Below, one piece after another: positions 51,159-64,000 of a DNA stretch of 64,000 nucleotides. The position numbers and the translations under genes are program-made. The notes below the pieces were generated by a model. The model did no database searches. It was not told the DNA's origin and saw only the letters and a list, made by a program, of their open reading frames with translations. The first letter of the stretch is position 1; each line of letters starts with the position of its first letter. This stretch comes from Oscillospiraceae bacterium (lineage in GTDB: Bacteria; Bacillota; Clostridia; Oscillospirales; Ruminococcaceae): positions 32,651-96,650 of the forward strand of contig JAFRTG010000026.1 in assembly GCA_017427265.1 (NCBI GenBank), written 5' to 3'.

Positions 51159-52064
51159 ATGGGTCTGTTCAGAAGTTTTCAGAATGCAGGTCCCGGTATT
51201 GATCCGAATGCCCCGAAAAAGAAGCCGTTTTTCCGCTTCTGGGAGCTGCTTCGCCGGAACTTCGGAAAGCTGCTCAGCCTGAACCTGCTGTATACGCTGC
51301 TGCATGTTCCGGGATTGTTTTCGCTGGTTGTTTATCTGGAGACGGACAACAAATTCACCAATGCGATGACGCTCCTGCTGCTTGCGGTTCAGTTTTTGCT
51401 GGAAGGACCGATCATGGCGGGATGCGCGAGAGTGCTCCGGCTGATCGTGCTGGACAAACCGTTCTTCTTCGGCGAGGAGTTCCGGAAGGGATTCCGCCGG
51501 AATTTCGGCGCGGCGTTTCTCTACTGGTGTCTGGATGCACTGGTAATTGCTTCGCTGCTGGCCGGACACTGGGTCTATCCGCAGATCGCGCAGGCAACCG
51601 GAAACAAGGCGATTTTCATTCTCTACGGCATTTCGGTTTCCGTCGGACTGGTGCTGCTGTTCATGAACTACTATATCTGGGCGCTGCAGGTTGCAACGAC
51701 GCTGAAAAAGGGCACTGTTCTGAAGAATGCGCTGATGCTCTCAGGGCTTTCGATGAAGCACTGCCTGATTTCTACCTTCGGCATTGCGCTGATGCTCGGA
51801 CTGATTGTGCTGCTCTGGCTGGTGAACAGCTATTTCATGTTCCTGATTGCATTTTTCCCGGCGGCGTTCATCGGCTATCTGGTGATGTTCGTGCATTATC
51901 CGATTGTGCAGAAGTTCGTCATCAATCCGTATTATGAGGCGAGCGGTGAGCAGAATCCGGAGGATGAGGAAGTGATCCCGGAGGAGGAGCGCGTTTTCAC
52001 CGACCGCGGCACCACGGAAACACCGGTCAGCACAGACCGGAAAAAGGGCAAGGTCATCTCTTGA
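51159..52064 (+). CDS. YesL/DUF624-like membrane protein
   Basis: 301 residues, five to six membrane segments (NLLYTLLHVPGLFSLVVYLE, AMTLLLLAVQFLLEGPIMAG, and a C-terminal pair around 205-250). The pattern of a cytoplasmic N-terminus rich in basic residues, GPIMAGCARVLRLIV and FRKGFRRNFGAAF resembles DUF624/YesL proteins, whose role is unknown. The C-terminal ~45 residues are acidic and hydrophilic. It is the last gene with the high-GC composition of the chromosome; AT-rich DNA starts about 50 bases after its stop. Confidence 0.65.
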   Translation: MGLFRSFQNAGPGIDPNAPKKKPFFRFWELLRRNFGKLLSLNLLYTLLHVPGLFSLVVYLETDNKFTNAMTLLLLAVQFLLEGPIMAGCARVLRLIVLDKPFFFGEEFRKGFRRNFGAAFLYWCLDALVIASLLAGHWVYPQIAQATGNKAIFILYGISVSVGLVLLFMNYYIWALQVATTLKKGTVLKNALMLSGLSMKHCLISTFGIALMLGLIVLLWLVNSYFMFLIAFFPAAFIGYLVMFVHYPIVQKFVINPYYEASGEQNPEDEEVIPEEERVFTDRGTTETPVSTDRKKGKVIS

Positions 52065-52168
52065 AACGTGATACAGGCAAGGCGCTGACGGCAAAGGATT
52101 GCGCTCATATAGAAGTTTTATTCCAACTACTATAAGCAATAACTTTACAGCAGGCTATGAGACTAAAC

Positions 52169-52202
52169 AGGCAGATACTTCATATTTGTGAGGTATCTGT
52201 CT
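52169..52202. terminator. Terminator-like hairpin, left of the element's first gene
   Basis: Stem AGGCAGATACTTCA / TGAGGTATCTGTCT with two mismatches, followed by TATTTTAT. It is closely related in sequence to the hairpin at 53595-53625. Confidence 0.7.
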
Positions 52203-52260
52203 TATTTTATAGCATTGTAAATCTTCATTCGCACTCAAATACTTTATTTAGCGGAGTTAA

Positions 52261-52289
52261 TTGACTTTTTGAATTGTATATGATATTAT
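52261..52289 (+). promoter_or_regulatory. Promoter of the 52.3-kb gene
   Basis: TTGACT (52261-52266), a 17-base spacer and TATTAT (52284-52289), about 40 bases before the ATG. Confidence 0.65.
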
Positions 52290-52328
52290 TGAGTTGTACA
52301 TATAAAAATGTTAGGGAGAGCATAGCTT

Positions 52329-53372
52329 ATGAATGAGCAGGAAGTATTATCGTTTATCGACTATTATAACCAAAAACTTGATCAAATGAATTACGATATG
52401 TATGTAGAAAGCAAACAGCAAGACAATGATTATCTTGTTTGTGGCTTATTGCCTAAACTATTTCTGAAAAACGATCCCAAACTGCTTGCATTACTTCGTC
52501 AACCTTGTAATCATGATAACCTAAAAGAATTGCTTCAGCGATATTTGGATGAAAGCTCAAATACTGAACTTAGCAAATTAGTTCCTGATTTTTCAAGTAA
52601 AAAGCCTGAAATTATTGAACCATTAGCTGAATGGATTTATAATTATAACTATATGTTAGCCTATCCATTGTGTGGAGGTTATGAAAAAGATAATACATTA
52701 ATGATAAGTGATCCTGAAATGATACTGTCATATGTCTATATTTATCTAAGAATTAACTATTCTGATAGATACTTTGATTATTCATTTCATCAACCCCTAA
52801 TTGATTCGTTATATAAAGATTCCTTTGATAAATCATCGACTTTCAAAAAGTGGGGGCTACTTCCGATAGATAACAATAGAATATTGTGTGCTTTGGATGA
52901 GCCTGTAAGAATATATGATAAGACTACTAATAGAACCATTTTTATAATGTTAAGTCGTTCACTTGCATTAATCTTCGATGAGTTAATAAACGATCATTTT
53001 ATAAACAGTATTTCATTTAGAGGAATAGATAATCGTATTTATGAAGGAGAAAATCATCTCAGTACTATATGTGAGGCTGTTGAAAAAGGTTTGATTTTTT
53101 CATTTGATCTGGAAAAACTACCGAACATCACTAAATTATATAAAGAGTGCAACTTTGAGGATACGTTGTGGGTTATTAAGGACAATCAAAATATCACATT
53201 TGAAGAACTGTGCAGTGATTTTCATACCGCTGAAGATACTATCGTCACTCAGTTGATACATCTTGAGTATGATAATGACTGTATTACCCACATAGATCAT
53301 GAATATATTTTTTACTCAATAGAAGAATATGATCAACGGTTACGAAACCCACATACCAAGGGCGAGGCTTGA
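52329..53372 (+). CDS. Hypothetical protein of the mobile element, 347 aa
   Basis: Soluble, rich in Asn, Asp, Ile and Tyr, AT-rich codons. The N-terminus (MNEQEVLSFIDYYNQKLDQM) is helical; no membrane segment or catalytic motif is recognised. AGGGAGAGC precedes the ATG. It lies between two related hairpins (52169 and 53595), so it appears as a self-contained cargo unit with the small frame that follows. Family not recognised. Confidence 0.75.
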   Translation: MNEQEVLSFIDYYNQKLDQMNYDMYVESKQQDNDYLVCGLLPKLFLKNDPKLLALLRQPCNHDNLKELLQRYLDESSNTELSKLVPDFSSKKPEIIEPLAEWIYNYNYMLAYPLCGGYEKDNTLMISDPEMILSYVYIYLRINYSDRYFDYSFHQPLIDSLYKDSFDKSSTFKKWGLLPIDNNRILCALDEPVRIYDKTTNRTIFIMLSRSLALIFDELINDHFINSISFRGIDNRIYEGENHLSTICEAVEKGLIFSFDLEKLPNITKLYKECNFEDTLWVIKDNQNITFEELCSDFHTAEDTIVTQLIHLEYDNDCITHIDHEYIFYSIEEYDQRLRNPHTKGEA

Positions 53373-53393
53373 AAGAGAGTTAAAACATTTAAG

Positions 53394-53567
53394 GTGGATA
53401 AGTCGTCAATTCCTATGAATTATCCATGTAAGATGTTTAGAACCCAAAACAGAGATTTGGTAGAAGTTAAAGTTCCATTTATATATTTTGTATTAAATAG
53501 TTATTTTGAGCATAAAGAATTACTTGAAGAATACTTTTCGGATTGTTTAACCAACCAACTTGCTTAA
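53394..53567 (+). CDS. Small hypothetical ORF, 57 aa
   Basis: GTG start at 53394 (or ATG at 53415) to the TAA at 53565. The reading MNYPCKMFRTQNRDLVEVKV, then PFIYFVLNSYFEHKELLEEY has protein-like composition but no strong ribosome site. It may be a short partner of the preceding gene or the tail of a decayed one. Confidence 0.35.
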   Translation: MDKSSIPMNYPCKMFRTQNRDLVEVKVPFIYFVLNSYFEHKELLEEYFSDCLTNQLA

Positions 53568-53594
53568 TCAGTTAACATAGAATATAAATCGCAA

Positions 53595-53625
53595 CAGGCA
53601 GATACTTCAAGTGAGGTATCCGCCT
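53595..53625. terminator. Hairpin terminator between convergent genes of the element
   Basis: Stem CAGGCaGATACtTCA / TGAGGTATCcGCCTG followed by TTTTCG. It is a sequence relative of the hairpin at 52169-52202. Confidence 0.75.
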
Positions 53626-53639
53626 GTTTTCGTATATAT

Positions 53640-54404
53640 TCACTTATAAAACCCGTTTTCATCAGGCTCGCCAAAGCAACTATGGCAAGTATACGGTTCG
53701 GAAATCTCGTTTATCCCGTCAGCGGTCAATTTCAGTTCCCGTGTGATAAACGGGAATATCCTGCAATGACTTATCATTAAAACGCCTATCTTCGGATTCT
53801 CATGGATCACCTTATTGATAAGATTGCTTATATGCCTTGCGTTTACAAAGTCAAGGTTGTTAAGCGGTTCGTCGATAATCAGCAAATCCGAATCTGAACG
53901 GGTTGCGATGACGGAGAATACTTGGAGAAGCCGTTGTTCACCACCGCTGAATTTTCCAGGGCGAGACTTGGCATCGAATATCCGACTATTATCTCCTCGG
54001 CGCGGAAGCCACTCGTCGATAAGGTCATTGACTTCTGAATAGCTCATATAACTGTTAGAATGGGCTTCGCCGCTGTTGCTGATAACATCTCGTACCTGTA
54101 TACGTCCCATTTCAGAGTATTCATCTTTCTGTGGTATATAAGCAATACTCGAACGATACCGCTGGAGTTCAGTATCATCTAACGCCATGATATTTCCGAA
54201 GTTATGGTGAATGATCTCTCCGTCTATCTTCTTTCCCTCTGTTTCCAATCGCATAATACTTTTCAAGATGGAGCTTTTACCGATACCGTTTTCGCCTGAG
54301 AGCAATACTACTTCATCGCTGCCGACTTCAAAGGAAATGTTCTGCATCAATGTCCTCTGTTTGAGCTGTATTGATAGATTCTTTACGCTGATAATACTAT
54401 CCAT
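53640..54404 (-). CDS. ABC transporter ATPase of the toxin-linked operon
   Basis: 254 residues. Walker A LSGENGIGKSSIL, Q-loop region AYIPQKDEYS, signature KFSGGEQRLLQVF, Walker B LLIIDEPLNNLD and H-loop MISHCR. The short single-domain form resembles LolD/MacB-type ATPases. A C-terminal Cys pair (YTCHSCFGE) is unusual. Start at 54404 is set by GGAGG 8 bases upstream; it lies 2 bases after the stop of the preceding permease. Last gene of the six-gene minus-strand operon. Confidence 0.88.
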   Translation of the reverse strand: MDSIISVKNLSIQLKQRTLMQNISFEVGSDEVVLLSGENGIGKSSILKSIMRLETEGKKIDGEIIHHNFGNIMALDDTELQRYRSSIAYIPQKDEYSEMGRIQVRDVISNSGEAHSNSYMSYSEVNDLIDEWLPRRGDNSRIFDAKSRPGKFSGGEQRLLQVFSVIATRSDSDLLIIDEPLNNLDFVNARHISNLINKVIHENPKIGVLMISHCRIFPFITRELKLTADGINEISEPYTCHSCFGEPDENGFYK

Positions 54405-54406
54405 GA

Positions 54407-55399
54407 TTATTTCCTCCATAGCCGCCTGTTGATTATTGCAGTCGCTGTAAATAGTGTTATAAGCTCGATCAACGGTATCCATATTACAAGTATTATTCTG
54501 ATAGCTTTAATATCAACGAATAGGAATACTATGCTTGACAGGGCAAGTGCGATTACTATAGAAACGACTCCTGATTTACATATATAACTGCGATACGCTT
54601 TGTTCAGCTTTTCCTTCTCAAATCCCAGCATTACAAGCCTGCGGAAATTACAAGCTATGCCTTTGCTTAACACACAAGCAGAAATAATCGTAATCGCTAT
54701 AGAAATCAATGAGAAGACCGCTAAATAAGGAATGATGCTCAGAACAACAGAGCGAACCTCGTCATCACGATAAATAATATCCTGCGGTGTGGCTGAACAC
54801 TTTGCCGTAAAATCGTTAATGCTTTCATCGGTGAAGACAACGCAGTTATGTGTGATATGGTCAACATATTCCGCATCATAACCCATAATGATAATACCAT
54901 TACTATGCTTGTTGCCTGTATCTACTCTTACGCACACTGCTTCTGGTATTATCTGTTCAATAGCATATTCACAAACTTCACCAGTTACTATATGCTTTGA
55001 GTACAGCTTATCGCCTAAATGCAGATTGTTTGATTTGGCTATATTCTTTGATACTGCGATTCTATGTGTGCTTAACTCATTTGCGTTCCAATATACAAGG
55101 TCGGTATAAACCGAACTATTGGACTGCATTATAATATCGGCATTAAGGCTTGACTGAGAATCAGCAGCCAGCGCAAAGTCTATGCCTGCATTGAACTGAT
55201 AGTAATCATTTTCAAGAACAGGCTCTTGTGTTGTTACAGAATAGTCATAGTCTGAACGAATAAGCGAATTGAGCTGCATACAGTCCTTGTTTACTGAAAA
55301 AATAAGCACCAATACAAGAAAAAGCGAGATCAGAGTGAATATCGCTAATACAATCGCCGTTCTTCGTGGCTCTGCTTTAAGAGCTATACGATTCTTCAT
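54407..55399 (-). CDS. FtsX-like ABC permease B
   Basis: 330 residues with the MacB/LolC layout: one N-terminal helix (about 15-36, AIVLAIFTLISLFLVLVLIF), a ~190-residue extracytoplasmic domain, then three helices (about 225-320: PYLAVFSLISIAITIISACV, a second after KSGVVSIVIALALSSIVFLF, and IILVIWIPLIELITLF). Such proteins form mechanotransmission exporters that act on lipoproteins or peptides rather than classic channels. It lies 37 bases after permease A and 2 bases before the ATPase gene. Confidence 0.8.
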   Translation of the reverse strand: MKNRIALKAEPRRTAIVLAIFTLISLFLVLVLIFSVNKDCMQLNSLIRSDYDYSVTTQEPVLENDYYQFNAGIDFALAADSQSSLNADIIMQSNSSVYTDLVYWNANELSTHRIAVSKNIAKSNNLHLGDKLYSKHIVTGEVCEYAIEQIIPEAVCVRVDTGNKHSNGIIIMGYDAEYVDHITHNCVVFTDESINDFTAKCSATPQDIIYRDDEVRSVVLSIIPYLAVFSLISIAITIISACVLSKGIACNFRRLVMLGFEKEKLNKAYRSYICKSGVVSIVIALALSSIVFLFVDIKAIRIILVIWIPLIELITLFTATAIINRRLWRK

Positions 55400-55436
55400 T
55401 GTATTATCACCTAACCTCGCTTATCTTATTGAGAAA

Positions 55437-56600
55437 TCAATTATCGTTTGATTTTCTGACTTTTTCTTTTTTGATGATACCCTTTATCATAGAACCGTTC
55501 ATAATAAGGGCAATCAATTCAGCGATTATCGCTGCTGCTGGAATAATAGCAATTTCTATGCTGAGTGCTGATTTCGGAATGTAGTCTGCCGAAGTCTTGA
55601 ACTTATAAAGCATTATAGCCGCATAAGCTACAATAAAGCAGAGAAGCTCACACATGAAGGTCTTGCTGTAGTATGGCTTGACATTCTGCCCCTTGGGTAT
55701 GCAATGCTTTGTAAAATAGCCTTTTTCGCAGCCACGCTTAGACATTACTACATTGAATATGATTATCAAAACCGCCGACAGAGCTGCACCTATGAAGATC
55801 ATAATAGGATTTACTTTTTTGTCAAGGCTGTTCTCCCGAACACGGAAATCCGTGATCTCATTTGCATATCCCGATGACATGATTGCATCATAATGCACCT
55901 GATACTGCTCATCGCTGTCAAAACGGTCACGATCCTTTAATCTGCCCATTGGTCTGTAGTCCTTGGTCAGATAAGCCTGACAAGCGTTATAATCGCTTGC
56001 GGAAATATACATTCCCGAATAGCCGTTGTTCTGAGATTTCTGAACAATGGCTTCTTTTTGCTCGGTGCTTAGTTGTGCAAGGATAGCGCCGTTCTCATAA
56101 ATGCTGTTTGTTTCGTAGATAGCATATATCTTGTATTCTGCGGTTGTGTCACCGATAGAAAATGATACAGTATCGCCTATATCCGTCGAAGTGTCCTTAC
56201 AGAACTGCCAATCCACAATAATCGGATTTTCAAAGTCTGAATCCGACTTCTTGATAAGACGTTTGCTGTTATACATAGTATTATCGACGTTTTCAAAGCG
56301 GTCACTCAGCAGAACTGTTGTTGTCCTCGATTTACCGCCTGCGTTTACAGCAGTTTTTGTCAGGAAGAATGGGAACACTGTATCGATCCCGTTGCTTCCG
56401 GGCAATTCATTTATCTGCTCAAAAGACGGCTCAGGGGCGATAAAGTCAATATTTGTGTTTTTATAAACGCTCTGCGAATTATAGTTATCCGCAATCTGAG
56501 AAATAAACGGGAACACAAACAACAGTCCGGCTACTACAGCAATGACAGCACTCAGGAAGATTGATAATAAGGCTCTGTGCCTGATCCAATAGCCTGTCAT
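55437..56600 (-). CDS. FtsX-like ABC permease A
   Basis: 387 residues. N-terminal helix at about 10-32 (ALLSIFLSAVIAVVAGLLFV), an extracytoplasmic domain of about 230 residues, then helices at about 265-287 (MIFIGAALSAVLIIIFNVVM), 315-332 and 345-370. The C-terminus is basic. The start at 56600 has GGAGG 7 bases upstream and overlaps the stop of the lipoprotein gene (TGATG). It pairs with permease B and the ATPase. Confidence 0.8.
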   Translation of the reverse strand: MTGYWIRHRALLSIFLSAVIAVVAGLLFVFPFISQIADNYNSQSVYKNTNIDFIAPEPSFEQINELPGSNGIDTVFPFFLTKTAVNAGGKSRTTTVLLSDRFENVDNTMYNSKRLIKKSDSDFENPIIVDWQFCKDTSTDIGDTVSFSIGDTTAEYKIYAIYETNSIYENGAILAQLSTEQKEAIVQKSQNNGYSGMYISASDYNACQAYLTKDYRPMGRLKDRDRFDSDEQYQVHYDAIMSSGYANEITDFRVRENSLDKKVNPIMIFIGAALSAVLIIIFNVVMSKRGCEKGYFTKHCIPKGQNVKPYYSKTFMCELLCFIVAYAAIMLYKFKTSADYIPKSALSIEIAIIPAAAIIAELIALIMNGSMIKGIIKKEKVRKSNDN

Positions 56601-57115
56601 CACTCTTCCTCCGTCTTTTCTTCTTTTTTCTCTACAAATATCAGAGTACTCTGCTTGTCATAAGAAGAATCAACATTGTCATCAAATACAAGCGTCATCG
56701 GAACTTCACCAACTGCATTCGGGACAAACTGAATAACACACTCCTGATCAACTGCCGTTTCAGATGCGTTAGCAGTAAACTCGTATGTAGTGACATTGTT
56801 GACTGCATCGAAGTTGGGTGTGATGATCTGACCGTCCATATACTTTGCATCAACATTGTCAATGCTCGGAATAGTGAGAACAACCTTGACCTGAGAGGTC
56901 TTACTCTTATTTGATGTAACTTTAAACTTAACCTTCATATATACAGTATCACCGATCTCATATTCCTTAGTGCCGTCGCCGTAGCTATGACCTTTATCGG
57001 CACTGTAGAAGAAATCAGAAGCGGCAGAATAGGTAGTTTCCCCACAAGCTGTCAGTGTACCCATTGCAAGAGCCGTAACGAGCAGGGCAGAGAGCGTTCT
57101 TTTAATTCTTTTCAT
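56600..57115 (-). CDS. Small lipoprotein of the toxin-exporter operon
   Basis: 171 residues. Lipoprotein signal with lipobox LTAC (Cys about 24), then a beta-rich domain (YEIGDTVYMKVKFKVTSNKS, VKVVLTIPSIDNVDAKYMDG, VPMTLVFDDNVDSSYDKQST) resembling Ig-like or DUF4352-style surface folds, and a Glu/Lys-rich end. AAAGGAG precedes ATG 57115. It sits between the immunity-like gene and the FtsX-like permeases, so it could be the periplasmic-type adaptor or cargo of the ABC machine. Confidence 0.75.
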   Translation of the reverse strand: MKRIKRTLSALLVTALAMGTLTACGETTYSAASDFFYSADKGHSYGDGTKEYEIGDTVYMKVKFKVTSNKSKTSQVKVVLTIPSIDNVDAKYMDGQIITPNFDAVNNVTTYEFTANASETAVDQECVIQFVPNAVGEVPMTLVFDDNVDSSYDKQSTLIFVEKKEEKTEEE

Positions 57116-57163
57116 CTTATATACTCCTTTTCTCATATTGATATTGCCTATAATTGCATACGG

Positions 57164-57544
57164 TCAGAGAATTATATCCTGAATCCCAACTGTCACTTTT
57201 CCGTCCGAAGAAAAGACAACAGCTAATCCATGCTCCAAGTCATAGCGATATTTACACATCATAGCGATTCGTGGATTTTCCTTATCTCGCTTGACAAAAA
57301 GGCATTCAGGCTTGATATAGCTGAATATATTGTCTTTTTTAGTGTTTTCCTCGTCGCTCATGACTTGTTCTCGACAGTAATCCTCTACAATAGACTTTGA
57401 CTGCTCGATCCACTCGGTATGAGATTTGAAGCGCTTTAAGGCTTGAATTTGGGCTTTTGTTACTTCTTCGCCTTCGTAGCAGTCATACTCAACAGGCAGC
57501 GTAAACTTTCTTCCCCAGATAGTTGTCTCTAATGACTCAATCAA
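57164..57544 (-). CDS. Putative immunity protein (DUF6985-like), overlapping the toxin gene
   Basis: 126 residues. It starts at TTG 57544 with AAAGGAG 9 bases upstream, both inside the last codons of the toxin gene, so the two are translationally coupled. Soluble, with WGRKFTLPVEYDCYEGEEVT at the start and CKYRYDLEHGLAVVFSSDGK, then VTVGIQDIIL at the end. That ending is characteristic of a family (DUF6985 as I recall) frequently encoded next to polymorphic toxins. Position directly after a nuclease toxin is the main evidence for immunity. Confidence 0.65.
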   Translation of the reverse strand: MIESLETTIWGRKFTLPVEYDCYEGEEVTKAQIQALKRFKSHTEWIEQSKSIVEDYCREQVMSDEENTKKDNIFSYIKPECLFVKRDKENPRIAMMCKYRYDLEHGLAVVFSSDGKVTVGIQDIIL

Positions 57545-58976
57545 AATCAGACACTCCTTTCTGACCAATCATGGCGTTATATTCTCCGACTCCGCCAAGA
57601 TGCCCAAATCCGGCATTAACTTCAGTCGGTACCAATTGCATTGATTCCATATTGTTCATTTCGTGCCAAGTAAAACCATTACTTGTCCTGTATGTTTCAA
57701 TGTCTCTTGCTGTCCAGCTTTTTCCATCATATTTATTTTTAGTCCAGATTTCTGCAAGAGCCTTATCTGCCTGTTTGAAATTTTGTGTTCTGCTATCAGT
57801 CATATTTGATATTTTTACTTGGGCTTTTTGAACTGATGAAAAATCTGGAACTCCATTTTTGTATGTCACTTTAGCGCCTGCTTTGATCTCGTAAGTTTTT
57901 TCACCAATTTTAATTGTTTTTGATTTATCGTAAATATAATCAGATTTTCCTCTCTCACCAGACCAATGACCGTATTCGTCATTCTTAGGAGTTTGATCTA
58001 TTCTTGCTTTAAGTGTACTATAAGGCGAGTTATACTTTTGATAATAGTCATATCCCTCAGCACCGCCATGAACTGTGCCGATGATAGCACCCCACATATA
58101 TCCGTCAGAAGCATTTTCAATGGCTTTCTCTGCTGATGAAACACCGACTTTTTCCCAGTCAACATTGCTCCAATCTATATCGGATGCATCTGTCGAGGTG
58201 TATGTTTTCACGGCATTATATCCTGCATAAGCTGTTCCTGCTGTTGCAGCTAAGACCGATATGCCAGCTATAACGAGCTTTATTCCTGCTGCTGCTGTGA
58301 TAGTAGTGCTTCCTCCGGAAGGAACAGCAGCCACTAATGATACAATTGAAAGAATAAGACCAGCTGTTGCTGTAGCAAATCCTATGACAGCAGATTTTCT
58401 TCCCGTTTCGTCCAGCTCATCGGTCGCACCAGTCAGTCCACCAAACAGTGTACCTATCGCTGCACCTGTTCCTGCGAATTTCAGCGATTCATCGGCGGCA
58501 GCAACAACAGCACTTGCAATTGGATCAGGTAGTCCTGCTTTCTTTAAGACAACAACAGTTACTATTACACCTGTACCCACAGCCACCTTGGTTAGCACCG
58601 ATTTTATATTGATACCCTCTCCGAAAAGGTGAGTTGTTTGGCTGTTTTCTGCAAAATCTTCAATATGCTCTTGTGGGACATATATGGTTTTACAGCACAT
58701 AACTTCGGTGATAGTTTCTTCTTCAAGCAGAAGCTCGGAAATCTTGTCCTCAGCGAGAACTATTTCTTCCAAATATATCTCAGTTGTTATAAATTCGTGC
58801 AACTCGTTTTCGGTGATTACGTTCTCTATCTCAATATTTTCTGTAACCGTCTGCGGATTTGCATCTGAAATAGTAGGCGTTGGTGGAGAATTTGAACACC
58901 CTACAGACATCAGCAATATGGAGATTACTAATATCAACGATATTACTCTATCTACTATACTTCGCCTGATCATCAT
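57537..58976 (-). CDS. Lipoprotein with C-terminal HNH/EndoVII-like nuclease toxin domain
   Basis: 479 residues. Signal peptide with lipobox SVGC (Cys about 27), then a Glu-rich stretch (about 30-115). A Gly/Ala-rich hydrophobic middle follows (about 125-275) with several possible membrane helices (VLTKVAVGTGVIVTVVVLKK; VIGFATATAGLILSIVSLVA; IKLVIAGISVLAATAGTAYA). The linker contains a predicted beta region (IGEKTYEIKAGAKVTYKNGV). The last ~75 residues have the WHE-type variant of the HNH/EndoVII toxin fold: GFTWHEMNNMESMQLVPTEV, then GHLGGVGEYN. In polymorphic toxins this pattern marks a DNase. GGAGGGG precedes ATG 58976. A separate immunity-like gene overlaps its end. Confidence 0.75.
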   Translation of the reverse strand: MMIRRSIVDRVISLILVISILLMSVGCSNSPPTPTISDANPQTVTENIEIENVITENELHEFITTEIYLEEIVLAEDKISELLLEEETITEVMCCKTIYVPQEHIEDFAENSQTTHLFGEGINIKSVLTKVAVGTGVIVTVVVLKKAGLPDPIASAVVAAADESLKFAGTGAAIGTLFGGLTGATDELDETGRKSAVIGFATATAGLILSIVSLVAAVPSGGSTTITAAAGIKLVIAGISVLAATAGTAYAGYNAVKTYTSTDASDIDWSNVDWEKVGVSSAEKAIENASDGYMWGAIIGTVHGGAEGYDYYQKYNSPYSTLKARIDQTPKNDEYGHWSGERGKSDYIYDKSKTIKIGEKTYEIKAGAKVTYKNGVPDFSSVQKAQVKISNMTDSRTQNFKQADKALAEIWTKNKYDGKSWTARDIETYRTSNGFTWHEMNNMESMQLVPTEVNAGFGHLGGVGEYNAMIGQKGVSDFD

Positions 58977-59058
58977 ATTATCCCCTCCAATATGACTATG
59001 AAACAACGTCCAATATTTTGTTTCTATCGCAGGACAAATTCGATACATATTCATATAT

Positions 59059-59087
59059 ATTATAGCATAAGTCTGAAATAATTTCAA
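59059..59087 (-). promoter_or_regulatory. Promoter of the toxin-exporter operon
   Basis: On the minus strand: TTGAAA (59087-59082), a 17-base spacer and TATAAT (59064-59059). The leader to the toxin start is about 75 bases. No other good promoter is seen before the ATPase gene, consistent with one operon. Confidence 0.7.
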
Positions 59088-59355
59088 TATTTTTATGCAT
59101 AATTTGTCACATTGCTACAATCGTAATACTGTTTTTGTGAAAAGCTACTTTGAATCAAAGGTGTAAAACATATATTGGTATTACAGTTTGCTCAAAAATG
59201 CAAATATCACTATAATAGTAGCTTTTATCAAAGAATGCATCATATCCTTCTTGATTATAACATATTTCGGAGGTTTATTCAATAGAAAACAACATATTTC
59301 CTTTGAGTATAGGTGATTCTTTTTGTTGTATCATAGTAATTAGAGGTGAATTGCT
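59088..59355. other. Divergent region between the toxin operon and the XRE regulator gene
   Basis: About 270 bases, strongly AT-rich, no open frame. It holds the toxin promoter at one end. The XRE protein encoded next door may bind here, but no clear operator palindrome is visible. Confidence 0.45.
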
Positions 59356-59667
59356 ATGACAGAGGATTTTGTTAGGAACAGAATAACTCAGCTCCGACTC
59401 CAAAAGGGCGTATCGGAGTATCAGATGAGCTATGATCTCGGTCATAGCCGTGGATATATCTATAATATTTCATCAGGCAAGTCCTTGCCGCCGCTTTCGG
59501 AGCTTTTTGCAATATGTGATTACTTCGGCATCACGCCTGCGGAATTCTTCGATGACAGCATTTCCAATCCTGAGTTGATACGGAAAGCTGTGGAGGGTAT
59601 GAAACAGCTCGATGACGGAGATCAGTTGATGATTTTGAATCATATCAATAGGCTTTTGAAGAAATAG
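59356..59667 (+). CDS. XRE-family (Cro/CI-type) transcriptional regulator
   Basis: 103 residues. HTH_3 domain at about 8-62 (ITQLRLQKGVSEYQMSYDLG, HSRGYIYNISSGKSLPPLSE, LFAICDYFGITPAEFFDD), followed by a helical tail. Typical of small regulators in ICEs. AGAGGTGAA precedes the ATG. It is divergent from the toxin operon and could regulate it or the transfer genes. Confidence 0.88.
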   Translation: MTEDFVRNRITQLRLQKGVSEYQMSYDLGHSRGYIYNISSGKSLPPLSELFAICDYFGITPAEFFDDSISNPELIRKAVEGMKQLDDGDQLMILNHINRLLKK

Positions 59668-59679
59668 GAGGACGGTTAG

Positions 59680-59871
59680 ATGAACGGATATATAAAACCT
59701 GATTTTGTTCCCGAAGATCCATATCAGAAAGCTCGTAAAGATCTTATACAGGCATTAGAATCGTTTTCTCAGTTGAATCCTCAGCAGAAACAAGCACTGT
59801 TAAACGAGATGTTTCAATATGCTACTTTTCAAAGTTTTTTAGATCAGTATAACAATAATGGAATGAGATAA
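59680..59871 (+). CDS. Small hypothetical protein, 63 aa
   Basis: AGGAGG is 10 bases before the ATG, which is 12 bases after the XRE stop, so the two form a small operon. Helical sequence (ARKDLIQALESFSQLNPQQK, ALLNEMFQYATFQSFLDQYN). No family recognised. Confidence 0.65.
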   Translation: MNGYIKPDFVPEDPYQKARKDLIQALESFSQLNPQQKQALLNEMFQYATFQSFLDQYNNNGMR

Positions 59872-59876
59872 AGTTT

Positions 59877-59907
59877 AAGGAGCGTTACCGCATTGGTAAC
59901 GCTCCTT
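59877..59907. terminator. Bidirectional terminator
   Basis: Perfect 13-bp stem AAGGAGCGTTACC / GGTAACGCTCCTT with a 5-base loop between convergent genes. Confidence 0.8.
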
Positions 59908-59917
59908 ATCTGTCGTA

Positions 59918-60127
59918 TTAGTCCTCGTCCGAGCACTCCTCCAATCCGTGCATAAGCTGAATGTATACGCACTCTGCTCGTTCGTGTTCCTCGCCGTCAG
60001 TAGACATCATAAGTTCAAGGAAATATGTCTTTGCTTCTTCGTAATCCGTCCAGACCTCACGTTTGCCGTTGTAGAAAGTCGTGACCTTGCGTGTTCTCGG
60101 CATTGCCAGTTCAGGTGTTTTTAACAT
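59918..60127 (-). CDS. Small hypothetical protein of the element, 69 aa
   Basis: Begins with MLKTPELAMPRTRKVTTFYN and ends in an acidic tail (LEECSDED). GGAGG precedes the ATG by 11 bases. It follows the relaxase gene by about 140 bases on the same strand. Small proteins of this look are common beside relaxase genes in clostridial elements; function unknown. Confidence 0.65.
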   Translation of the reverse strand: MLKTPELAMPRTRKVTTFYNGKREVWTDYEEAKTYFLELMMSTDGEEHERAECVYIQLMHGLEECSDED

Positions 60128-60266
60128 TGCTTTGTACCTCCAAAAGTCTTATTGTGACTCCATTATATCCGATAAAACTACCGGAGTCCAGCATATCGGG
60201 ATAATTGTAATAATCTTTGTGCAGGGCGCAGCAATATCACAATTATCCCCGGTGCAATGCGCTGTA

Positions 60267-61667
60267 CTATTCAAGATCATTCCGCTTGCGCTTTTTCTGC
60301 TGGTCACGGCTCTGTTCCTGACGGAGATACTGTTCGATCTCTCTTGCCGCCTCGGATAGCTCTCTTGCTTTCTGATCGATAGCTTTGTATTCTGTATTTT
60401 TCTGTACACGTTGTGCAGTCAGATCAGCGATCATCTTCTCGAATTTCTCAACAGAAGGAGCAGTCCTATCGGGATACCATTCCAGAATTTTCTGTGTGAG
60501 CATATGATGCTCGGCAAGTGATTCACTATTTTCCTTTTTGAACTTCTCCTTTTTCCGCCCGCTAAGCGACATATACTCCTGACGTATCGGTTTCACTTCA
60601 CGGTATTTGCGGAGCGTTTCTGCACGTTCTTCAAGCTCCTTGATTTCAGTTGACAGGCGATTAAGTTCCTGCACAAGTGCAAACCTCTTACTGTATGCGG
60701 TAATGCTTGCAGTCTTGGCTTCATCAGCGGTCACGCCGTACTTGGCAAGAGTGTTCAGAGCCTTACTTGTGATCTTCATGTTTTCACGGTCAATGGCATC
60801 ACGGACAAACTTGTTTTCTTCAGCCTTCGGAGTGATAACTCTGACTTTAGTTTTCGGCGTATAAAGCATTATGCCTTTGTACTGAGCAATGCGTCCTTTT
60901 ATCTGCTCAGTTTCATAGAACCAGCCGAGCGTTCTGCTTCGGGTAAACTTGGCTCTCGGATTGTTTTCACGCTGCTGTGCAAGCATAAATTTCAGGTCGA
61001 TCGTGTGTTCGGGATTATACTCGACAAGTATGCCGTATTCGGCGCATTTCAAAAGAAAATCGTCAAAATCCTCGCTGACCTTGACAACCTGATCTATGGC
61101 ATATTTCAGCTTGGCTTTCCATGACAGTCCCTGACGTGACATATCCCATTCCCAATAGCTCTTGCCTTTGGAGTTTTCAGGATGCTGAATAACGGATAGA
61201 TTGTTCTCACTGCATAGTTCGTCTGAGATACGCCGAAGCTCCGCCCAGGCACGGTCTTTCTTATTGCCCTGATTATGTTCAGTTTCAAAAGTCTTGCCCG
61301 TCATCATGTTCGTATTATTCACGATAATATGTGCGTGGATATGTTCATGATCTTCGTGTATGGCAATGACATATTGATACTGCTCCTGCAACAGCCGATG
61401 ACATAGTTCTTCTGCTATCTCCATAGCTCTTTCGGGGGTAACTTCTCCGGGAGAAAAGCTCTGAATTATGTGCTGTGCTTGGGTGGTACTTCGCCCTGTT
61501 CCGAAACGCTGACGGACGGCTCGGAACTGCTCGGCTGCTCGAACGGGTTCTGTCTCGCACATAAAAGACTGGACAAGTGCATGACCTCTGGTCTTATTCC
61601 CGTCCACGATGTATTCAAGGCTGTCGCACACTGAACTCCTGATTGAATGTAATTTAGTAACTGCCAT
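60267..61667 (-). CDS. Relaxase/mobilisation nuclease (MOBP-like)
   Basis: 466 residues. Relaxase domain in the first ~200: LEYIVDGNKTRGHALVQSFM (start region with nicking-Tyr candidates), HIIQSFSPGEVTPERAMEIA (motif II), and the HEDHEHIHAHIIVNNTNMMT metal-binding triad (motif III). The C-terminal ~250 residues are Lys/Glu-rich and coiled-coil. It nicks oriT and leads the strand into the recipient. The N-terminus overlaps the 3' end of mobC by 202 bases in another frame, which is unusually long. Confidence 0.92.
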   Translation of the reverse strand: MAVTKLHSIRSSVCDSLEYIVDGNKTRGHALVQSFMCETEPVRAAEQFRAVRQRFGTGRSTTQAQHIIQSFSPGEVTPERAMEIAEELCHRLLQEQYQYVIAIHEDHEHIHAHIIVNNTNMMTGKTFETEHNQGNKKDRAWAELRRISDELCSENNLSVIQHPENSKGKSYWEWDMSRQGLSWKAKLKYAIDQVVKVSEDFDDFLLKCAEYGILVEYNPEHTIDLKFMLAQQRENNPRAKFTRSRTLGWFYETEQIKGRIAQYKGIMLYTPKTKVRVITPKAEENKFVRDAIDRENMKITSKALNTLAKYGVTADEAKTASITAYSKRFALVQELNRLSTEIKELEERAETLRKYREVKPIRQEYMSLSGRKKEKFKKENSESLAEHHMLTQKILEWYPDRTAPSVEKFEKMIADLTAQRVQKNTEYKAIDQKARELSEAAREIEQYLRQEQSRDQQKKRKRNDLE

Positions 61668-62116
61668 ATCTCGTTCACGCTCGCTTTCATCATTGTAATA
61701 TCTTCACTGTAAGCACGTCCTGTTCCGTTCACTCTGCGGGCTACCTGATTCACATTCGCAGCAAGCCCACGAACTGCACCGACGATGTTCTTCATATCGT
61801 CCTGATCTATCATCAGAACATAGTGCGCTTTGGTACAGTCACGGACATAACTGGACTTTCTCATTTTAAGCAAATCAGCCTGCTTGCAGATATGCTCCCA
61901 CTCCGTATCATTGAAGCGGATATTAAGAGTATGATTACGGCACTGAGCCCGTCCGTCGATATACTCCTGTTCATCTGCTGTAAGGCTGTCGGGAGATACT
62001 TTTTCAAGCACTCCGTCAAGCTCCTCTTTCATACCGTCACGGGTATAATTCAAAGCAAGTTCCTCGCTGTCCTTGTGACCGTAATCACGCTTGTAGTTTT
62101 TCTCTGCTTTTGTCAT
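61466..62116 (-). CDS. MobC-like relaxosome accessory protein
   Basis: 216 residues. The MobC core lies at about 60-150 (NHTLNIRFNDTEWEHICKQA, DLLKMRKSSYVRDCTK ribbon-helix-helix part, VRGLAANVNQVARRVNGTGR, NEIWQLLNYIQSG). It helps the relaxase bind oriT. The last ~60 residues are encoded over the relaxase start and look non-homologous (Ser/Pro-rich), so the reading frame probably runs on past a lost stop. The ATG at 62116 has AAAGGAG upstream. Confidence 0.85.
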   Translation of the reverse strand: MTKAEKNYKRDYGHKDSEELALNYTRDGMKEELDGVLEKVSPDSLTADEQEYIDGRAQCRNHTLNIRFNDTEWEHICKQADLLKMRKSSYVRDCTKAHYVLMIDQDDMKNIVGAVRGLAANVNQVARRVNGTGRAYSEDITMMKASVNEIWQLLNYIQSGVQCATALNTSWTGIRPEVMHLSSLLCARQNPFEQPSSSEPSVSVSEQGEVPPKHST

Positions 62117-62496
62117 GGTGTTCTCCTTTCAATTTTGACCGCATCAGCGGTCTTTTTATTTCGGGGGGGGGGCAGGGGGCGGCAGCCCCTCTGACAAGCA
62201 TCGTGATAAAGTCCCGTTTCTCCGAAACGTGGCGCATATCACCGTGCTTGCGAACTGAGAGTGCCGATTTTCATCGGCACGGCTTATTCCCGCCTGTGGC
62301 GGTTTTCTCGCCTCTGTTGCGAGAAATCGGAGCTATGCGACTTTCTCTCTATTATGCCACCGCATTGGTCGGTAGTCATATCGCTCACGCTCCGCCGTGA
62401 TGCCCTCCCTATGCCTATGATATAATTGTAGAATATCTCGGCGCAGTTACTGCGCAACTTGGGCGGCAGTCTGGTGAAAAATAAAGAATATGTTGA
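62117..62496. other. Non-coding region upstream of mobC, candidate oriT
   Basis: About 380 bases without a credible gene. It contains a G10 homopolymer (62163-62172), GGGGGCGGCAGCCCC, a hairpin GTGCCGATtttcATCGGCAC (62251-62270) and further inverted repeats (CCGCCTGTGGCGG; CTCGCctctgttGCGAG). Dense hairpins next to mobC/relaxase genes are what an origin of transfer looks like, but no nick consensus can be assigned. Confidence 0.45.
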
Positions 62497-62525
62497 TTGA
62501 CTTTTTTATAAAAATGACTTATACT
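62497..62525 (+). promoter_or_regulatory. Promoter of the 62.6-kb gene
   Basis: TTGACT (62497-62502), a 17-base spacer and TATACT (62520-62525). Confidence 0.65.
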
Positions 62526-62578
62526 ATTATTGTAGCGTAATTTAGTAATATATTGTAAATTTGGAGGTAATAACTCAA

Positions 62579-63184
62579 ATGAATATTACAAAATATGAAG
62601 AAATAAAAATTCGTACAAAGAATAATGAAATCTTATGGAACAATATTCACGGCATTGCAACTGAAGAAACAGCCATTATTATGGATAAAGCAATGTTAAA
62701 TTGGCTAACCGAACTTACAAATACTCTTGAAATATGGATTAATAAAGGGGTGAATTTAACTATTTGCGAACTAATACTTGCAAGGACTAATCTTGGTAGT
62801 ATAGTTGAATTTTGGTTAAGACACTTTTATACTGCTTATCATGAGGATTATAAAAAGAATCCAATAACGAACAAGAATAATGTTGCAAAAAATGCTCAAA
62901 AAGAAGCATCATTTGATGAGTTGAAGAAATTCAGCACTGGCATACTGTGGAAAGATGATACGGATCCTATGTATAAATGGGTAGATTCTGTACAACATAA
63001 GCGCAATGCTATACACAGTTTCATATATAAGGAAATCGGTACACCAACAGATTTTTTGGATGATGTGGACTATCTGCTGGATTTCATTAAGAAAATTGAA
63101 AATCAGTTACCATCTATTTTAGATTGTATTGATGTTATTCCTTCTGGATATGTAGATATTGACGGTTTGTTTTATAACATCTAA
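62579..63184 (+). CDS. Hypothetical protein with HEPN-like RNAIH motif
   Basis: 201 residues, soluble, helical, AT-rich codons. Near the C-terminus, SVQHKRNAIHSFIYKEIG resembles the conserved Arg-X(3-6)-His motif of HEPN RNase and AbiV-like families; FWLRHFYTAYHEDYKKNP is a second aromatic-rich helix. It has its own promoter and GGAGG 11 bases before ATG 62579, and lies as cargo between transfer genes. A defence role is only a suggestion; the fold is not confirmed. Confidence 0.6.
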   Translation: MNITKYEEIKIRTKNNEILWNNIHGIATEETAIIMDKAMLNWLTELTNTLEIWINKGVNLTICELILARTNLGSIVEFWLRHFYTAYHEDYKKNPITNKNNVAKNAQKEASFDELKKFSTGILWKDDTDPMYKWVDSVQHKRNAIHSFIYKEIGTPTDFLDDVDYLLDFIKKIENQLPSILDCIDVIPSGYVDIDGLFYNI

Positions 63185-63419
63185 GATCAAGTCGCAGGAG
63201 TTCTCAACAACACTTGTTTTTATTGGGCACTAAGTATATATTTGCTTAGTGCTATTTTTTCTGGACAAATTACACTGGGGAAAATTGAAATTTGACAAAA
63301 AGTTCATGCGCAATTGCGGCTGGACAAACTGCTCTGTTGCGCGCTATAATTTGATTGTGGGGATACCACAACAGACACAAACAAAACAAGGAGAGAATAA
63401 AACGTAAGGAGGTGACGGT
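63185..63419. promoter_or_regulatory. Leader region with promoter of the 63.4-kb operon
   Basis: TGGACA (63321-63326), an 18-base spacer and TATAAT (63345-63350). The string CTGGACAAA occurs twice upstream (near 63260 and 63320), possibly marking a regulator site. No gene in this gap. Confidence 0.5.
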
Positions 63420-63731
63420 ATGCTTACCTATGAACAGCAGACAGAAAAGCTCCTGAGCAAGCGTCAGGCAGTGCTTGAACGTATCGAGAACGACAAGGCT
63501 GAGATCGAAAAGATCAATGCAAAGCTGAATGCTATCCAGCTCGCTAAGATCAGGGACGCACTTGGCTGTGATGAGCAGGGGCTTTTTGAGCTTATCACCA
63601 AGCACCCTGAACAGCTTGCAAAGCTCAGAAAGGACAGCATTTTCGAGAGCGATACAGATACAGCTCAGGACGATGATGAGTTTGGTCAGCAGATGTGCTT
63701 TACTGACAAGAAGAATCCTTATGAGGATTGA
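63420..63731 (+). CDS. DUF4315-like coiled-coil protein of the transfer region
   Basis: 103 residues. Coiled coil over about 5-45 (QQTEKLLSKRQAVLERIEND, KAEIEKINAKLNAIQLAKIR), then an acidic end. Resembles the DUF4315 proteins found in Tn916/Tn1549-type transfer regions, whose function is unknown. AAGGAGG lies close to the ATG. Confidence 0.65.
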   Translation: MLTYEQQTEKLLSKRQAVLERIENDKAEIEKINAKLNAIQLAKIRDALGCDEQGLFELITKHPEQLAKLRKDSIFESDTDTAQDDDEFGQQMCFTDKKNPYED

Positions 63732-63736
63732 GAAGT

Positions 63737-63785
63737 GATAGCTGTGATAATCGGGACGGCAGCAATGCCGTTCCGCACAGCTATC
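63737..63785. terminator. Compound hairpin after the 63.4-kb gene
   Basis: Outer stem GATAGCTGTG / CACAGCTATC enclosing an inner stem ACGGCA / TGCCGT, followed by an A-rich, not T-rich, stretch. It may be a structured mRNA element rather than a terminator. Confidence 0.5.
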
Positions 63786-63884
63786 ATAAAAGTATAAGGC
63801 AACAACAAAACGAGGGTAAGATAGAGAAGGCGAAGCCCTCACTCTATATGCGTAGAGATAGACAAGCAAAGGAGAAAGTTCGCT

Positions 63885-64000
63885 ATGAATAATAAAGATA
63901 ATATTGCCGTAGAAAATACGGCAACAGAAACTGTGTCCGAGTACAAGATCGGACATACGCTGTATACGGTCAAGACCGTATTCACCCCTGCTTCAATGGA
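63885..64000 (+). CDS. TnpW-like transposon-encoded protein, cut by the window edge
   Basis: 38 complete codons are visible from the ATG at 63885 with AAAGGAGAAAG upstream. The sequence TVSEYKIGHTLYTVKTVF resembles the start of TnpW family proteins (about 60-70 residues) of clostridial conjugative transposons. The rest is outside the window. Confidence 0.65.
   Translation, partial: MNNKDNIAVENTATETVSEYKIGHTLYTVKTVFTPASM

What the first reader, a model, noticed from the sequence alone, without database searches (positions are those of the whole stretch)
53640..59087. Six-gene operon: lipoprotein nuclease toxin, immunity gene and a dedicated MacB/Lol-like ABC machine
One promoter (59087-59059) leads, on the minus strand, to a lipoprotein with a C-terminal HNH/EndoVII-like (WHE) domain, an immunity-like gene starting inside the toxin gene, a second lipoprotein, two FtsX-like permeases and an ABC ATPase. 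Several of the joins are overlaps or gaps of a few bases. Polymorphic nuclease toxins usually travel through T6SS, T7SS (LXG) or contact-dependent routes. A lipid-anchored nuclease next to its own mechanotransmission ABC exporter in a Gram-positive is not a layout I know. The nearest analogy is the SitA lipoprotein toxins of Myxococcus, which are exchanged between outer membranes. Idea: the FtsX-type pump extracts or displays the lipid-anchored toxin for delivery to neighbours.
Basis: partly seen in the sequence, partly recalled or inferred. Interest (0 to 1): 0.85.

Follow-up and report, generated by a model that had tools for sequence, protein, structure and literature searches.

The report
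Lipoprotein DNase toxin with ABC machine
A Clostridia bacterium carries a six-gene cassette that encodes a predicted membrane-anchored DNA-cutting toxin with an interchangeable tip, its likely antidote, and a dedicated ATP-driven membrane machine, which may be an undescribed way for Gram-positive bacteria to handle a weapon used on neighbours.

Summary
The operon is real and intact: lipoprotein nuclease, antidote, small tethered protein, two MacB-type permeases, ATPase, behind a strong promoter. It is a conserved unit: 19 of 22 loci carry the lipoprotein toxin with the ABC module; two are cut by contig ends, one is a truncated remnant. Some loci are near-copies. Three clades share an N-terminal region but differ behind it. 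The nuclease tip recombines: two pairs of near-identical operons carry strongly diverged tips, and tip distances correlate with no other segment. The nuclease + DUF6985 pair also stands in unrelated dynamin/HerA loci, supporting DUF6985 as the antidote; yet it tracks the transporter, not the tip. Pfam misses the permeases; profile comparison matches them to MacB. Best reading: a SitA-like lipoprotein toxin handled on the outer face of the cytoplasmic membrane by its own type VII ABC machine. Toxin and antidote are well supported by sequence; release versus self-protection by the ABC is inferred.

The parts
59059..59087 (-). sigma-70-type promoter, TTGAAA-17-TATAAT with TG extension
   Evidence: 11 of 12; one of two such sites in the stretch, the other inside ftsX1
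57537..58976 (-). lipoprotein toxin, 479 aa: lipobox-like Cys at residue 27, N-terminal region with hydrophobic stretches (126-144, 197-215, 226-244), C-terminal Colicin-DNase/WHH(E) nuclease
   Evidence: Lgt present in own genome
57537..58025 (-). exchangeable nuclease tip (residues about 318-479)
   Evidence: identity and dS breaks in L021/L022 and L023/L024
57164..57544 (-). DUF6985 immunity protein, 126 aa, TTG start overlapping the toxin stop by 8 nt
   Evidence: same nuclease-DUF6985 pairing in L117 and L038
56600..57115 (-). lip2, small extracytoplasmic lipoprotein, 171 aa, no known family
55437..56600 (-). ftsX1, MacB-type permease, 387 aa, 4 hydrophobic stretches with a large domain between the first and second
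   Evidence: hydropathy; hhalign 95.2%, E 2.9e-8, over residues 76-216, to a MacB set
54407..55399 (-). ftsX2, MacB-type permease, 330 aa
   Evidence: hhalign 87.8%, E 3.3e-6, over columns 14-313
53640..54404 (-). ABC ATPase, 254 aa
   Evidence: ABC_tran 3.3e-18
53593..53626 (.). inverted repeat just after the last gene; only a weak T-run on the minus strand
   Evidence: read directly; the scan lists a stem at 53601-53620 as terminator-like on the + strand only

Best explanation
This is a polymorphic toxin system of Clostridia. Step 1 (well supported by sequence): the toxin is exported by Sec as a lipoprotein and anchored on the outer face of the cytoplasmic membrane, carrying an HNH/EndoVII-type nuclease at its C-terminus. 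Step 2 (well supported by sequence): the DUF6985 protein made from the overlapping gene neutralises the nuclease in the cytoplasm of producers and siblings. Step 3 (inferred): the two MacB-type permeases with their ATPase form a type VII ABC complex; with the tethered small protein lip2 as extracytoplasmic partner it pulls the lipid-anchored toxin out of the membrane and releases or presents it to neighbouring cells, as LolCDE extracts lipoproteins. Step 4 (inferred): the hydrophobic N-terminal helices insert into the target membrane and bring the nuclease in. The cassette is often found beside mobility genes and its tip is exchanged by recombination.
For: Order toxin-(immunity)-lip2-ftsX1-ftsX2-abc kept in three clades, with ftsX1 identity down to about 20%. 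Toxin present in 19 of 22 loci; 2 cut by contig ends, 1 a 5'-truncated remnant; L030/L031/L033 and L036/L037 are near-copies, so fewer are independent. Lipobox-like Cys in 19 of 19 toxins; Lgt in own genome. Nuclease tip shared with proteins annotated Rhs and LXG and, with DUF6985, with dynamin/HerA loci in G204 and Lactococcus plasmid pB26B. Tip exchange: L021/L022 dS 1.76 in the tip against 0.05-0.44 in the other segments; L023/L024 saturated against 0.07-0.42 (ftsX2 and abc not compared there); window and L021 share a tip (dS 0.02) on diverged backbones. Tip distances correlate with no other segment (Spearman -0.06 to 0.16, Mantel p 0.15-0.65, n = 13) while the other segments correlate with each other at 0.37-0.89. 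MacB homology of the permeases. Type VII ABCs are thought to act on the outer face; LolCDE is the lipoprotein case, and AS-48EFGH is listed as a possible bacteriocin exporter (PMC5985334, passages). No intact toxin-free copy of this ABC family was seen.
Against: No direct evidence of release, contact killing or transport. lip2 shows no sequence match to LolA or HlyD adaptors. Several Gram-positive MacB-type ABCs protect against peptides. Immunity follows the transporter, not the tip, unlike classical pairs. A tip relative in Treponema stands before an SMI1/KNR4 gene, not DUF6985. Clade III (L106) has no gene between toxin and lip2, so its protection is unexplained. The WHH pair is WHE in clade I, so activity is not certain. 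The clade II ftsX1 profile alone matches MacB only at 40.6%.
Confidence: 0.45

Rival explanations
1. The ABC module and lip2 protect the producer: they strip the membrane-inserting toxin (own or a sister's) from the outer leaflet, as YknXYZ and BceAB are thought to do with peptides; the toxin itself is released in another way (shedding, vesicles, lysis).
For: YknXYZ and BceAB are described as protective (PMC5985334 passages). Toxin N-region and ftsX1 distances correlate (0.63, p 0.0013), as expected if the ABC acts on the N-region, in either direction. Immunity gene and ABC evolve as one block. Distant ABC-permease-permease modules without this toxin exist (L107, L108).
Against: No intact toxin-free copy of this ABC family among 22 loci, two of which could not be judged; one truncated remnant (L035). 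A cytoplasmic immunity protein already exists.
Confidence: 0.27
2. A cell-surface nuclease barrier against phage or incoming DNA, with DUF6985 guarding the cytoplasm before export.
For: Some copies sit beside defence genes: JetD and an AAA protein with a type II restriction match (L025), BrxC and PglX (L035), DruE and DruD (L106), a NERD-helicase match and WYL (L034). Clade III has no immunity gene.
Against: No PADLOC match of the window's toxin, immunity, lip2 or permeases (a clade II toxin has a weak SduA match, 3.4e-4). Tip exchange and an antidote are marks of interbacterial toxins; WHH domains are said to be largely restricted to polymorphic toxins (PMC3482391, passage). The neighbours given to PADLOC were picked because most looked like defence genes (5 of 10 and 6 of 7 matched something) and no background rate was measured; many other loci lie beside housekeeping or mobility genes.
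Confidence: 0.1
3. An ordinary antimicrobial-peptide or drug efflux ABC that happens to share an operon with an unrelated toxin pair.
For: MacB homology; own genome has 27 FtsX matches elsewhere.
Against: Linkage kept across three clades and diverse insertion sites; the permeases are not recognised by the FtsX or MacB_PCD models in the own genome.
Confidence: 0.06

Closest known systems
SitA/SitI (SitBAI) lipoprotein toxins of Myxococcus (PMC5562445, PMC8546572; passages read)
   Same: Lipobox, conserved N-terminal region of 300-odd residues, exchangeable nuclease tip, adjacent antidote, in some cases an accessory secreted protein, mobile-element location.
   Different: Clostridial host, so no outer-membrane exchange is expected; ABC ATPase and two permeases in the operon; sequence homology to SitA was not tested.
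LolCDE lipoprotein extraction system (PMC5985334, passages)
   Same: One ATPase with two different 4-TM MacB-type permeases; a lipoprotein as the presumed client.
   Different: No LolA-like chaperone detectable by sequence; one client in the same operon; no outer membrane destination expected.
MacAB, YknXYZ and other MacB-type ABCs (PMC5985334, passages)
   Same: Permease family and an extracytoplasmic partner protein.
   Different: No adaptor match for lip2; permease and ATPase on separate chains; presumed client is a 479-residue lipoprotein.
Simple two-gene lipobox or signal-peptide toxin + immunity systems of Gram-positives (PMC12419801, passage read)
   Same: Secreted or lipid-anchored toxin with neighbouring immunity gene in Gram-positive bacteria.
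   Different: Lipocone tips; no ABC module in the passage, and 'ABC transporter' does not occur in that paper.
WHH/Colicin-DNase tips of Rhs and LXG toxins
   Same: Homologous nuclease tip.
   Different: Other carriers; here a lipoprotein carrier.

Membership tests
Polymorphic toxin systems | conserved N-terminus with exchangeable C-terminal tip | tested here: met
   different tip in L106 on a related N-region (hhalign 94.2%, tip 0.2%)
Polymorphic toxin systems | immunity gene directly downstream | tested here: met
   a small gene in that place in 18 of 19 toxin loci: 15 homologues of the window's DUF6985 protein, 3 another protein whose role is assumed; none in L106
Polymorphic toxin systems | immunity allele matches tip allele | tested here: not met
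   imm vs tip distance r = -0.02, p 0.54, n = 13
Polymorphic toxin systems | tip shared with other carriers | tested here: met
   Rhs, LXG, dynamin/HerA loci
SitA lipoprotein toxins | type II signal sequence with lipobox | tested here: met
   cysteine after the hydrophobic stretch in 19 of 19 toxins by a simple rule; lipidation itself not tested
SitA lipoprotein toxins | delivery by TraAB outer-membrane exchange | not tested
   no search for TraAB was made; not expected in this lineage
SitA lipoprotein toxins | sequence homology to SitA escort domains | not tested
   no SitA sequence was fetched
Type VII (MacB-type) ABC transporters | 4-TM permease with extracellular domain between TM1 and TM2 | tested here: met
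   hydropathy: ftsX1 four stretches; ftsX2 three over threshold in the window, four in L019, L030, L036
Type VII (MacB-type) ABC transporters | homology to the MacB permease | tested here: met
   hhalign 95.2% (ftsX1) and 87.8% (ftsX2); clade II ftsX1 alone 40.6%; 8 control proteins and reversed profiles at most 3%; Pfam models negative in the window
Type VII (MacB-type) ABC transporters | Porter fold of the extracellular domain | not testable with these tools
   structure prediction switched off
LolCDE | LolA-like carrier partner | tested here: inconclusive
   lip2 has no Pfam, NCBIfam or PDB sequence match of note
LolCDE | extracts lipoproteins | not testable with these tools
   needs biochemistry
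MacAB efflux | HlyD-type adaptor and NBD fused to permease | tested here: not met
   no Pfam match for lip2; ATPase and permeases in separate genes
Known anti-phage systems (PADLOC 2023) | match of toxin, immunity, lip2 or permeases | tested here: not met
   0 families for these five proteins of the window; generic ATPase matches for abc; weak SduA match of a clade II toxin

The most novel reading that the evidence does not exclude
A distinct weapon class of Gram-positive bacteria: a lipid-anchored, tip-swapping nuclease that is pulled off the producer's membrane by a dedicated Lol-like type VII ABC machine and handed to neighbours, with one broadly acting antidote guarding against many tip alleles.
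Probability: 0.35. Interest if true: 0.9.

Novelty: new variant of a known kind. Interest (0 to 1): 0.72.

Why it matters
Lipoprotein toxins with swapping tips are known from Myxococcus, where outer-membrane exchange moves them. A Gram-positive version needs another way to leave the producer, and this cassette brings its own membrane machine. I know of no other ABC machine dedicated to a lipoprotein weapon (recall). The natural operons that differ in the tip but keep one antidote make the question of broad immunity directly testable. In the searches made here (listings; and passages of the five papers read, the first of which is held only in its first 300,000 characters) no description of such a cassette was seen; bioRxiv and most subscription papers are not covered.

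Tried and rejected
Ordinary FtsX efflux pump: Pfam FtsX and MacB_PCD searches of the own genome found 27 and 6 places, none in this operon; 1 of 21 ftsX1 members reached MacB_PCD at 0.0011, below cut-off, and L106 ftsX1 at 0.024. First thought that tips are not polymorphic, since all clade I tips are WHH-type; sliding identity and dS overturned this. First thought that the antidote would be exchanged with the tip: it is not, apart from its first part in L023/L024 (immunity N-part dS 0.42, C-part 0.07). Suspected that DUF6985 is not an antidote at all: set aside because the same nuclease-DUF6985 pair stands in unrelated loci. Viral contigs: no relatives confirmed for ftsX1, toxin or lip2. tblastn with the window proteins found nothing in plasmids for ftsX1 or immunity or in phages for immunity; the plasmid DUF6985 of L038 was seen only by Pfam. 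The PDB profile hit of the toxin N-region to ATP synthase subunit c (E 0.02) is taken as a hydrophobic look-alike. The tip's PDB relative 8bd1 (Rhs) is weak (0.08). L017, L107, L108 and L109 are generic or other FtsX modules and were not counted as members. Defence-island enrichment was not tested against a background. In one search a third tip test stopped the script with an error, and the planned ftsX1 and immunity clade tests therefore did not run; two tip tests are reported.
Full report
Observation. The minus strand from 59087 to 53640 holds a strong promoter and six genes with tight joins: toxin 58976-57537, immunity 57544-57164, lip2 57115-56600, ftsX1 56600-55437, ftsX2 55399-54407, abc 54404-53640. 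A second equally scoring promoter-like site lies inside ftsX1. The toxin ends in a Colicin-DNase/WHH nuclease (6.5e-21, 8.9e-12) and the next protein is DUF6985 (1.2e-9). No Rfam family reaches its cut-off in 52000-64000. The window ends at the end of contig C24 of its genome.

Conservation. With ftsX1, 5 of 247 genomes of the family match, 4 of 394 of the order (one, G269, is a generic FtsX), and 14 of 391 of the class at E <= 1e-4. Of these 14 only the window's genome and G677 were shown to be members; I opened G677, G623, G850, G790 and G269, and not the other eight weak matches. The toxin N-region matches 3 of 247 genomes of the family, all with the cassette. lip2 matches 1 of 398 genomes of the phylum, the own one. 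A pattern-based scan of named genomes gave 20 loci, some the same records as before. Counting the window, these 20 and L106: 15 clade I loci, 3 clade II loci (L034, L036, L037) and L106 carry the lipoprotein toxin, together 19 of 22. L030, L031 and L033 are near-copies, and so are L036 and L037, so the independent number is smaller. L020 and L029 start at a contig end just before ftsX1 or lip2. L035 is the one exception with sequence upstream: a 61-residue piece of lip2, ftsX1 and a cut ftsX2 next to BREX genes. Of the 19, 16 show all six genes as open frames; L023 is cut in ftsX2 by the contig end, L024 has ftsX2 split into two frames, and L106 lacks a gene in the immunity place. Hosts by record title include Ruminococcus flavefaciens ND2009, Ruminococcus albus AR67 and Lachnospiraceae MAGs; one MAG is labelled Bacteroides, probably a binning error (inference).

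Three clades, one plan. Clade I toxins are 466-497 aa with a DUF6985 homologue; clade II are 786-817 aa with a WHH tip and a different 154-159 aa protein in the immunity place, weakly like a Peptidase_M26_N region in L010 (8.1e-6, below cut-off) and without a match in L016; clade III (L106, 592 aa) ends in an HH..N..H motif without a Pfam match (motif read by eye). The N-terminal 150 or so residues, signal sequence included, are related between clade I and II (92.0%, E 6.6e-7) and between I and III (94.2%, E 1.1e-7), reversed controls at most 1.9%; II against III gave nothing (0.4%); the III tip is unrelated to the clade I tip (0.2%). All 19 toxins have a cysteine at the lipobox place by a simple rule, and Lgt is present in the own genome.

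Tip exchange. Along the operon, L021 and L022 are 87-100% identical but 67-81% in the windows centred 58005 to 57593; L023 and L024 are 91-99% with the same dip to 62-75% and 83% in the next window (L023 ends in ftsX2). dS in the tip is 1.76 (L021/L022, other segments 0.05-0.44) and saturated (L023/L024, other segments 0.07-0.42). Window and L021 share the tip (dS 0.02) while ftsX2 is saturated; window and L018 share the ABC part (ftsX1 dS 0.30) while the toxin N-part is at 1.78. For the 13 loci with all segments, tip distances do not correlate with any other segment (-0.06 to 0.16; Mantel p 0.15 to 0.65), nor after dropping two near-copies (-0.24 to 0.11; p 0.27 to 0.89). AU tests on the tip reject L023+L024 (p 0.0025) and window+L021+L022 (p 0.021) as clades; the groups were chosen after seeing the trees.

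The antidote. Immunity distances correlate with ftsX2 (0.86), lip2 (0.68) and abc (0.60), weakly with the toxin N-part (0.37, p 0.014; 0.33, p 0.12 after dropping two near-copies), not with the tip (-0.02). Its C-terminal half is the more conserved. That it is an antidote is supported from elsewhere: in G204 a 221-aa protein with a Colicin-DNase tip (5.9e-16) is followed by DUF6985 (4.8e-11) behind a dynamin-like and a HerA-like gene, and on Lactococcus plasmid pB26B an HNH protein is followed by a DUF6985 protein (1.5e-5) in a similar locus. Against strict pairing, a tip relative in Treponema is followed by an SMI1/KNR4 gene. So one antidote seems to serve many tip alleles; this is inference until tested. 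In the family search DUF6985 relatives were found in 6 of 247 genomes: three in the cassette, G204 as above, and two weak matches, of which G143 showed no recognisable pair and G133 was not opened.

The ABC module. Pfam does not recognise the window's permeases, but profile-profile comparison with 20 MacB-type permeases of the own and related genomes (21 picked, one gave no fitting frame) gives 95.2% for ftsX1, over its extracellular part, and 87.8% for ftsX2, nearly full length, against at most 3% for eight unrelated membrane proteins and reversed profiles; the clade II ftsX1 profile alone reaches 40.6%, and ftsX1 against ftsX2 17.7%. Hydropathy gives the MacB topology. MacB-type ABCs are reported not to carry substrates across the cytoplasmic membrane on current evidence; LolCDE extracts lipoproteins, YknXYZ protects against a peptide toxin, AS-48EFGH is listed as a possible bacteriocin exporter (PMC5985334, passages). 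This fits a client that Sec has already exported, and leaves release and protection both open.

Mobility and setting. Neighbours include a relaxase (window, L018), serine recombinases (L019, L021), NikA/MobC (L022, window), integrases (L032, L037), ParA (L036) and a transposase (L024) (chosen neighbours only). Some copies lie beside defence genes: 17 neighbours were given to PADLOC, picked by look, out of 193 neighbour frames of the 20 loci plus those of L106. No background rate was measured.

Verdict. My estimates: toxin with antidote about 0.85; type VII ABC tightly tied to it about 0.85; release or presentation as its role about 0.45; self-protection about 0.27. I score interest 0.72.

Noticed in passing
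L117:2956-10161, L038:1-5676, L030/L031/L033 from about 12200 on: A second toxin locus type: dynamin-like protein, HerA/DUF87 ATPase, small Colicin-DNase/WHH(E) nuclease and DUF6985 antidote, in G204 and on Lactococcus plasmid pB26B; a dynamin-like gene of the same look, with MotA/ExbB and ExbD-like genes before it, stands downstream of the lipoprotein cassette in near-copy Lachnospiraceae loci (Pfam tested on L030 and L031).
   Followed up: partly
L106:511-14000: Clade III cassette with an unrelated HH..N..H tip and no gene in the immunity place, directly upstream of a locus with DruD and DruE matches (Druantia).
   Followed up: partly
L025, L035, L034 flanks: JetD, a type II restriction-like AAA gene, BrxC, PglX, a NERD-helicase match and WYL genes next to copies of the cassette.
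   Followed up: partly
window 59356-59667 (+) and L018, L021, L022, L028, L032: A closely similar Cro/C1-type HTH gene stands divergently upstream of the toxin in these loci (compared by eye), in L018, L021 and L022 with a 160-aa gene between (YpsA/SLOG-like below cut-off in L018): a possible regulator.
   Followed up: no
L107:5950-9328: A distant relative of the module: ATPase and two permeases with an 81-aa secreted-looking peptide gene in front instead of the toxin.
   Followed up: no
window:52329-53372 (+): 347-aa protein next to the cassette with no match worth naming in Pfam, NCBIfam, PHROGs or PADLOC.
   Followed up: no
L024:7901-8901: ftsX2 is split into two frames in this copy.
   Followed up: no
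clade I toxins, window 57537-57926: The WHH is WHE, and the following H of the motif is N, in 15 of 15 clade I toxins; the Lactococcus relative has WHE with H.
   Followed up: partly
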